Source of the DNA: Pseudodesulfovibrio sp. zrk46
Lineage (GTDB): Bacteria; Desulfobacterota; Desulfovibrionia; Desulfovibrionales; Desulfovibrionaceae
DNA length: 64,000 bases
Reading direction: 5' to 3'
NCBI RefSeq assembly: GCF_012516435.1
Contig: NZ_CP051216.1
Coordinates: forward strand, 124,001-188,000
This document shows positions 13,673-15,177 of the stretch, piece by piece. Within the stretch, counting starts at the first letter, position 1, and every line of letters starts with the position of its first letter. Below the pieces are notes generated by a model. The model was not told where the DNA came from. It saw only the letters and a program-made list of their open reading frames with translations, and did no database searches. The position numbers were made by a program, and so were the translations under genes.

Positions 13673-13972
13673 ATGACGCCATTCAACGACGACAAGCTGG
13701 CTGATATCTGCAAAGCGCTGGGACACCCGGCGCGCATAAGCATCCTGCGCCAACTCATCAAGGAAGACCGCTGCATCTGCGGCCGAATAGTGGAAGCGCT
13801 TCCTCTTGCCCAATCTACGGTGAGCCAGCACCTAAAGGTGCTCAAGGAGGCCGGACTGGTACGTGGCGAGATAGAAGGCCCAAAGACGTGTTATTGCATT
13901 GATAAGGAAACACTCTTTCGCCTGGGCCTGACCATGGACTCACTGATGCCGGAAAACGAGGTGCAACCATGA
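13673..13972 (+). CDS. ArsR-family transcriptional regulator of the hgcAB operon
   Basis: A 99-aa winged-helix protein: helix-turn-helix and recognition helix in LAQSTVSQHLKVLKEAGLV (about 44-62), beta wing in GEIEGPKTCYCID. The CIC in DRCICGRIV (about 25-27) lies near the place where ArsR/SmtB proteins bear metal or metalloid ligands, and CYC in the wing adds two more thiols; effector binding is inferred. Its TGA overlaps the ATG that I assign to hgcA (ATGA at 13969-13972), so the two are translationally coupled. From memory, an ArsR-like gene is reported upstream of hgcAB in Pseudodesulfovibrio. Confidence 0.92.
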   Translation: MTPFNDDKLADICKALGHPARISILRQLIKEDRCICGRIVEALPLAQSTVSQHLKVLKEAGLVRGEIEGPKTCYCIDKETLFRLGLTMDSLMPENEVQP

Positions 13973-15177
13973 CCTTGAACAAACCTCCCTTTGAGCCCAT
14001 GGATATGATGGACCCGAAGGACTGTGCGCCCACAGTCTGCACGTCCACTGACTGCGCTCCGGGCACGCCTACGGCGCCGGAAGACGACGCGCCCTGTTGA
14101 GGCCCCAAGCCTGTCCCCCGTGCCGGGGACTTTGAAAAGCCGGGCTATGCACTGGAACCATTCGTGGATGGGTTCCTCGACACCGCTGTCGGTCCCGTCC
14201 CTCGCGTGGCCACCGATTTGAACTTCAAAGACATGCTCGGGACCATCGGCGCCCGAACAGGGTATGGCCGTTACGACTACAAGGTCGTGCCGGGGCTGTA
14301 TTGTGTGGGCAACCCCACCCCCGAGTCACAAGTCCTTGTCACCGCCAACTACAAACTCACTTTTGACGCCGTACGCAAGGAGTTGGGCGGTCAGGATGTC
14401 TGGCTGCTCATCGCAGATACCCGCGGCATCAACGTGTGGTGTGCGGCGGGCAAGTCCCTTTTTTCCACCGAAGAGATTGTCCTGAGCGTTCAAAAAGCCC
14501 AGCTGGACAAGGTAGTATCCCACCGCACCCTTATCCTGCCGCAACTCGGAGCAACCGGGACCTCGGCCACGGCCATTCGCAAGCAATCGGGGTTTACGGT
14601 TGTATACGGACCTGTTGAGGCCCGAGACCTGCCTGCCTTCATTGCGGCCGGAAACAAGGCCGACGAGACAATGCGCACTGTCACGTTTGATCTTGTTCAA
14701 CGCGCAGAACTCATCCCCGTTGAAGTGTTCCAGTTCGTCAAGCCCATGGCTATCGTGATGCTGGCAGTATTCCTTCTGTCCGGTATCGGTTCGGACTTTT
14801 ACTCCATGTCCGCGGCATGGAGTCGCGGGTTGACCTTTGCCGGAGCCAGCATCCTTGCCATACTGGCAGGATGTGTTGCCGTCCCACTACTCCTGCCCCA
14901 CCTGCCGTGGCGACACTTCTCTGCCAAGGGAGCCCTGACCGGAGGACTGGCTGGCATACTCGCGACGAGTCTGTTCAATGGAGAAGGAGCAACACAAGCC
15001 GCTGCTCTGCTCATTTGGAACATCACCGCCGCATCCTACCTTGCCATGAACTTCACTGGTTCCACGCCGTACACTTCGCCCACAGGCGTCGAGCGTGAGA
15101 TGCGCCAATCACTGCCGTGGCAAATCGGCGGAGCACTGGTCGCCACCATACTCTGGCTGGCAGCACCGTTTATATAG
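13969..15177 (+). CDS. hgcA: Mercury-methylating corrinoid protein HgcA, inferred selenoprotein with in-frame UGA
   Basis: HgcA passes a methyl group from its corrinoid to Hg(II). The cap-helix signature NVWCAAGK gives the cobalt-ligand Cys, residue 93 when counted from the internal GTG at 14164. Five hydrophobic segments follow in the C-terminal half. I extend the gene to the ATG at 13969: GAGGTG (13958-13963) lies 5 nt before it, it overlaps the arsR stop, and its frame is that of HgcA with one interruption, TGA at 14098-14100. Read as selenocysteine, the product is 402 aa with Cys19, Cys24, Cys29, Cys43 and Sec44, and the cobalt-ligand Cys becomes 158. The GTG at 14164 has only a weak GGA upstream and would start inside a stretch that looks conserved (PGYALEPFVDGFLDT). 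If the TGA is a true stop, the upstream part is a separate 43-aa Cys-rich peptide. HgcA identity is near certain; Sec is strong inference. Confidence 0.9.
14098..14130 (+). promoter_or_regulatory. Candidate SECIS: UGA codon plus downstream hairpin inside hgcA
   Basis: The in-frame TGA (14098-14100) directly follows a Cys codon. Downstream, GTCCCC (14113-14118) and GGGGAC (14125-14130) form a 6-bp stem closing the six-base loop CGTGCC. The loop occupies +19 to +24 from the TGA, with G at +20 and T at +21. In the E. coli fdhF SECIS, as I recall it, the six-base loop AGGUCU sits at about +18 to +23 with its GU at the same +20/+21 positions. Bacterial SECIS elements typically have the apical loop 16-37 nt past the UGA with an early G. 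SelB recognition is inferred. Confidence 0.7.

What the first reader, a model, noticed from the sequence alone, without database searches (positions are those of the whole stretch)
13969..15177. HgcA appears to be a selenoprotein with a Cys-Sec pair in a hidden N-terminal extension
Seen: ATG 13969 has a good ribosome-binding site, overlaps the arsR stop as ATGA, and opens a frame identical to that of HgcA. One TGA (14098-14100) interrupts it, immediately after a Cys codon, and the frame continues without another stop into the conserved HgcA sequence. Known: in bacteria a UGA in a Cys-rich redox position with a hairpin downstream is how Sec is encoded. Inference: the mature protein begins with four Cys and one Sec, and the Cys43-Sec44 pair could bind Hg(II), as selenolate binds mercury more tightly than thiolate. 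The standard numbering (Cys93) assumes the GTG at 14164 and would cut this part off. As far as I know, a Sec-containing HgcA has not been described.
Basis: partly seen in the sequence, partly recalled or inferred. Interest (0 to 1): 0.95.

Follow-up and report, generated by a model that had tools for sequence, protein, structure and literature searches.

The report
Selenocysteine in mercury-methylating protein HgcA
A bacterial protein that turns mercury into methylmercury is very probably made here in a longer, selenium-containing form whose front end is hidden behind a re-read stop codon; the reading holds up well, but selenium-containing HgcA has already been reported in print.

Summary
In detail: ATG 13969 overlaps the arsR stop, one TGA (14098-14100) follows a Cys codon, and the frame runs on into HgcA. 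Selenocysteine is strongly supported. Of 45 matches with E <= 1e-50 in 98 related genomes, 38 contain one TGA, 7 no stop, none TAA/TAG. Of 149 distinct hgcA loci, 84 have UGA in the N-terminal tail and 41 Cys-Cys. Codons on both sides of the UGA are under protein-level selection. A SECIS-like stem just after it keeps 101 of 102 pairs in 17 same-genus genes; synonymous redraws reach at most 82. The genome has selA, selB, selD and tRNA-Sec. But it is not new: a 2026 review table lists HgcA with motif CU, citing Haft and Gwadz 2023. Mercury binding by the pair is untested, and active recombinant HgcA of about 37 kDa fits the short form. Side finding: Sec lies in HgcA or at HgcB Cys73, never both among 90 loci with Sec in either and HgcB readable; the HgcB case is one event on the tree.

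The parts
13673..13972 (+). arsR-type regulator; its stop overlaps the hgcA start
   Evidence: NF033788, 74.9 bits against cut-off 55; a homologue lies upstream of hgcA in 13 of 17 same-genus loci
13969..15177 (+). hgcA, long form, 402 residues with Sec44
   Evidence: NF040863 424.5 bits against 275, profile covers residues 77-401 only
14095..14100 (+). Cys43 codon (TGT) and UGA read as Sec44
   Evidence: UGA or Cys in aligned relatives
14113..14130 (+). SECIS-like hairpin: stem 14113-14118 with 14125-14130, loop CGTGCC
   Evidence: 101 of 102 cells paired in 17 same-genus genes
14164..14166 (+). GTG of the short form (codon 66 of the long frame)
   Evidence: start codon at this column in only 36 of 75 Sec forms scored, SD-like sequence in 2 of those 36
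14440..14442 (+). Cys158 of the long form = Cys93 of the short form, in the NVWCAAGK motif
15189..15476 (+). hgcB; Cys73 (15405-15407) and C-terminal Cys94-Cys95 are all Cys here
   Evidence: NF040864 108.4 bits against 99

Best explanation
hgcA here is a selenoprotein gene. Translation starts at ATG 13969; the UGA at 14098 is decoded as selenocysteine by SelB and tRNA-Sec, directed by the hairpin at 14113-14130. The product is a 402-residue HgcA with a flexible N-terminal arm that carries a vicinal Cys43-Sec44 pair in front of the corrinoid domain. Recoding is inferred from comparative evidence, not shown by experiment (my odds about 0.93). The role of the pair is a further inference (about 0.5): it captures Hg(II), or the methylmercury product, as a thiolate/selenolate complex and exchanges it with the methyl-cobalt site (over Cys158, i.e. 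Cys93 of the short form) or with the Cys residues of HgcB, as proposed for the C-terminal Cys pairs of HgcB and known for MerA. The arm looks like a helper and not part of the catalytic core, since some relatives lack the pair.
For: One in-frame TGA and no TAA/TAG in 38 of 45 good matches. UGA at this site aligns with Cys in relatives: 77 loci UGA at the main site, 7 UGA further upstream, 41 Cys-Cys, of 149. pN/pS 0.29 before and 0.27 after the UGA, 0.36 in the core; 1.75 and 1.29 in the two other frames. SECIS criterion met in 70 of 84 Sec forms, 9 of 36 Cys forms with CCG, mean 34.7 and at most 43 of 84 in 50 synonymous shuffles; stem 101 of 102 against at most 82 in 2000 redraws. selA, selB, selD and tRNA-Sec over cut-off. 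Role: arm mostly below pLDDT 50 in residues 1-42; number and place of Cys pairs vary; HgcB and MerA tails described in PMC7305189 (passages).
Against: No peptide or selenium evidence. The window's hairpin region alone is not unusually stable. 14 of 84 Sec forms fail the SECIS criterion on the minimum-energy fold. SelB is nearly universal in this set (69 of 74), so it does not discriminate. Active recombinant ND132 HgcA runs at 37 kDa, near the calculated 35.9 kDa of this short form and below 42.8 kDa of the long one, so the arm may be dispensable. 21 of 149 loci have neither motif.
Confidence: 0.87

Rival explanations
1. The UGA is a real stop. ATG 13969 opens a 43-codon leader peptide and HgcA proper starts at GTG 14164; the leader might regulate the gene.
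For: Active recombinant HgcA has the size of the short form; the NCBIfam profile starts at residue 77.
Against: Coding-type selection between the UGA and the GTG; TGA only, never TAA/TAG, in 45 good matches; Cys codon in its place in relatives; start codon at the GTG column in only 36 of 75; conserved SECIS-like stem.
Confidence: 0.04
2. Both forms are made: the long Sec form when selenium is available, and a short form by internal start at GTG 14164 otherwise, so selenium supply tunes the arm.
For: GTG 14164 is in frame in the window; a short form is active in lysates.
Against: The short start is not conserved and lacks an SD-like sequence in all but 2 of 36 cases with GTG.
Confidence: 0.12
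3. Sec is real, but the Cys-Sec pair is a redox device (selenenylsulfide) that reduces cobalamin or keeps Cys158 reduced, and does not bind mercury.
For: Many Sec entries in the review passages seen lie in redox motifs such as UxxC and CxxU. Cobalamin must return to Co(I) in the cycle (PMC11588087 passage).
Against: The pair is vicinal (CU), sits on an arm predicted disordered, and varies in number and place, with several CC pairs in some relatives; PMC11588087 assigns electron transfer to the HgcB clusters.
Confidence: 0.3

Closest known systems
Sec-containing HgcA (NF040863, motif CU; table in PMC13188914 citing refs 61 and 63, the latter Haft and Gwadz 2023)
   Same: HgcA with a Cys-Sec pair
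   Different: Nothing found; the primary paper is not held, so position and alignment could not be compared
Sec-containing HgcB (NF040864, motif GVGU; same table)
   Same: Sec in the same two-protein pathway; seen in 21 relatives here
   Different: The window's HgcB has Cys at that place
C-terminal Cys pairs of HgcB and of mercuric reductase MerA
   Same: Vicinal Cys pair on a flexible tail, proposed (HgcB) or described (MerA) as handling Hg(II) (PMC7305189 passages)
   Different: Here N-terminal, on HgcA, with Sec; mercury binding not shown
HgcA with Cys-Cys tail (e.g. L041, L048, L050, L066)
   Same: Same motif around the pair, PCCGP against PCUGP
   Different: Cys codon in place of UGA; SECIS criterion met in 9 of 36

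Membership tests
HgcA mercury-methylation corrinoid protein | NF040863 score over the curated cut-off | tested here: met
   424.5 bits against 275
HgcA mercury-methylation corrinoid protein | NVWC cap-helix Cys and adjacent hgcB | tested here: met
HgcA mercury-methylation corrinoid protein | Methylates mercury | not testable with these tools
   no experiment
Bacterial selenoprotein | In-frame UGA conserved, with Cys in homologues | tested here: met
Bacterial selenoprotein | SECIS-like hairpin just downstream of the UGA | tested here: met
   not significant for the single sequence
Bacterial selenoprotein | SelA, SelB, SelD and tRNA-Sec in the genome | tested here: met
Bacterial selenoprotein | Selenium in the protein | not testable with these tools
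   needs mass spectrometry or 75Se labelling
Published Sec-HgcA form | CU motif in HgcA | tested here: met
   Cys43-Sec44 against motif CU in the review passage; its position in the primary paper was not seen

The most novel reading that the evidence does not exclude
HgcAB needs one selenolate-grade mercury exchange site, and evolution places it either on the HgcA arm (Cys-Sec) or at HgcB residue 73 (Sec), never on both. The two would be interchangeable stations of one mercury hand-off path, and the HgcA arm would be a mercury-delivery element that constructs built from the short start leave out.
Probability: 0.15. Interest if true: 0.75.

Novelty: already known. Interest (0 to 1): 0.4.

Why it matters
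If the long Sec form is the native protein in methylators of this kind, the standard numbering, and any construct built from the short start, leave out 65 residues including a conserved Cys-Sec pair, and mercury methylation would be tied to selenium supply. How mercury reaches the methyl-cobalt centre is the unresolved half of the reaction (PMC11588087 passages), and the arm is a concrete, testable candidate for that step.

Tried and rejected
Chance in-frame TGA: rejected. Leader peptide with the start at GTG 14164: rejected as the main reading. Stability of the single window hairpin: not informative. SelB as a discriminator between Sec and Cys forms: not informative, since 69 of 74 genomes with hgcA have it over cut-off. 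Of the five without, G048 and G282 have no tail UGA; G008, G056 and G237 have the UGA but are 82% complete, 67% complete, and 96% complete in 510 contigs. Mutual exclusion of Sec in HgcA and HgcB as a statistical result: rejected, because all 21 HgcB-Sec loci form one branch, one change. Solved structure of HgcA: none found by sequence; the 4 matches are corrinoid iron-sulfur proteins. Earlier mention of Sec-HgcA in PMC2398784 and PMC5029168: HgcA and CO dehydrogenase terms have no occurrence in the main texts, although the review cites ref 61 beside ref 63 for HgcA; supplements could not be looked at. A look at the UGA context of the genome's own selD printed nothing; only the 1 TGA stands.

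Full report
What was checked. The frame from ATG 13969 contains a single stop, TGA 14098-14100, directly after a Cys codon, and then runs without a stop to TAG 15175-15177. GTG 14164, the short start, is codon 66 of this frame, and Cys93 of the short protein is the Cys of NVWCAAGK. The product matches HgcA (NF040863, 424.5 bits against a cut-off of 275), is followed by hgcB (NF040864, 108.4 against 99) and is preceded by an ArsR-type regulator (NF033788, 74.9 against 55; all). An arsR homologue lies upstream in 13 of 17 same-genus loci. The NCBIfam HgcA profile begins at residue 77 of the long form, so it does not see the part in question. The genus is probably Pseudodesulfovibrio: a same-genus locus, L004, has the same HgcA core as L031, a named contig of that genus.

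Is the UGA a sense codon? Five lines say yes. First, among 98 related genomes searched with the long protein, 45 matches have E <= 1e-50: 38 contain exactly one TGA, 7 no stop, none TAA or TAG. Second, 155 loci were gathered, 154 gave an HgcA match and 149 were distinct. They are the best matches to this protein plus those of a class-wide search, so proportions lean towards close relatives. By their tails, 77 have UGA at the main site, 7 have UGA further upstream (CUPP), 41 have Cys-Cys, 21 have neither motif and 3 are cut short. The neither class is defined by motif; some of its members hold other Cys pairs (L074, L097, L106, L145, L146), and one (L174) has Gly-Cys where its nearest relative on the tree (L155) has Gly-Sec. 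On a tree of the HgcA core, Sec against non-Sec needs at least 8 changes.

Third, the DNA on both sides of the UGA evolves as protein-coding sequence in this frame: pN/pS is 0.29 for the 6 codons before it, 0.27 for the 21 after it and 0.36 for 80 core codons, while the region after the UGA in the other two frames gives 1.75 and 1.29. These come from 65 of the 325 pairs of 26 sequences (core identity at least 70%) and are not independent. The short start is not conserved: of 76 Sec forms with Gly after the UGA, 75 could be scored, and the aligned codon is GTG in 36 and no start codon in 39; 2 of the 36 have an SD-like sequence. All 84 Sec forms have an in-frame start codon upstream of the UGA, 55 of them one with an SD-like match of 4 or more bases, by a loose rule.

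Fourth, there is a SECIS-like hairpin, in the window GTCCCC-CGTGCC-GGGGAC at 14113-14130. A criterion for bacterial SECIS that I recalled and did not take from a call is met by 70 of 84 Sec forms, by 9 of 36 Cys forms (those with CCG), and on average by 34.7 of 84 (at most 43 in 50 draws) when codons are replaced synonymously. In 17 same-genus genes (16 distinct stretches) the six-pair stem is kept in 101 of 102 cells; the best of 2000 synonymous redraws gives 82, and sliding the partner by 1 or 2 bases gives 35 to 67. Three cells are changed on both sides and still pair, one of them in the window. Against this, the window's hairpin region taken alone is not more stable than shuffles (z -0.46). 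Fifth, the genome has selB, selA, selD (which itself contains one TGA) and tRNA-Sec, all over cut-off. SelB is over cut-off in 69 of 74 genomes with hgcA, most Cys forms included, so this is necessary but does not discriminate.

What the arm may do. In a model built on 30 sequences, which I chose because they hold the motif, residues 1-35 and 38-42 are below pLDDT 50, confidence rises from 62 (residues 41-50) through 78 (51-60) to 92 (61-70), and the mean is 85.6. The short start falls at the first predicted strand (66-72). In these rows Cys43, residue 44 and Gly45 are invariant, which the choice of rows partly forces. Other relatives have several Cys pairs in the arm or none. I infer a flexible mercury-exchange arm, like the C-terminal Cys pairs that PMC7305189 proposes for HgcB and describes for MerA (passages). 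Against an essential role, PMC11588087 reports methylation by recombinant ND132 HgcAB in E. coli lysates and a 37 kDa HgcA band (passages); calculated masses for this window are 35.9 kDa short and 42.8 kDa long. Membrane proteins can run small on gels, and I could not see which start was cloned. The same paper says the purified complex gave no mercury methylation, which its authors put down to detergent, and that questions on the second half-reaction remain.

Is it new? No. PMC13188914 (passages) lists HgcA, NF040863, motif CU, example WP_250697417.1, and HgcB, NF040864, motif GVGU, citing Haft and Gwadz 2023 for both. [quoted passage not shown] That paper is not held and was not read. Searches for HgcA with selenoprotein, selenocysteine, Sec-containing, and N-terminal plus selenium listed no paper whose title or shown abstract start reports an experimental test of Sec in HgcA; of those listed I opened only PMC13188914 and PMC11588087, and the library holds open-licence papers only.

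A side result. In 21 loci HgcB has UGA at the codon of Cys73 (GVGU), the residue whose change to Ala abolished methylation in ND132 (PMC7305189 passage). All 69 Sec-HgcA loci with readable HgcB (of 84) have Cys there, and none of the 21 HgcB-Sec loci was seen to have Sec in HgcA: 4 have Cys-Cys, 16 neither motif, 1 is cut short. This suggests one shared site, but the 21 form a single branch (SH-aLRT 100, one change), so it is one event and proves nothing yet.

Noticed in passing
L058-L060, L063, L064, L072, L073, L075, L078, L081, L083, L088-L091, L094, L095, L097, L104, L106, L109 (hgcB after hgcA): HgcB with UGA at the Cys73 codon (GVGU) in 21 relatives; none of these has Sec in HgcA where the tail is readable. 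The HgcB-Sec form is in print.
   Followed up: partly
L101, L110, L139, L152, L153, L157, L158: Seven HgcA genes have the UGA in a CUPP motif further upstream than the main site, several with more CC pairs after it.
   Followed up: partly
L155 and L174: Two genomes of one genus: Gly-Sec at the site in one, Gly-Cys in the other.
   Followed up: no
L041 (38 codons before the NVWC motif); G215:C3:558862-559833 (L166): A TGA inside the HgcA core, where a Sec has no obvious Cys counterpart; may be sequencing errors or real stops.
   Followed up: no
G033:C3:30250-30603; G061:C6:6695-7848: hgcA remnants or split genes: two small pieces with a TAG in G033, a gene in two pieces in G061.
   Followed up: no
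G000:C1:1087726-1088655: selD of the window's own genome contains one in-frame TGA, so SelD is probably itself a selenoprotein.
   Followed up: no
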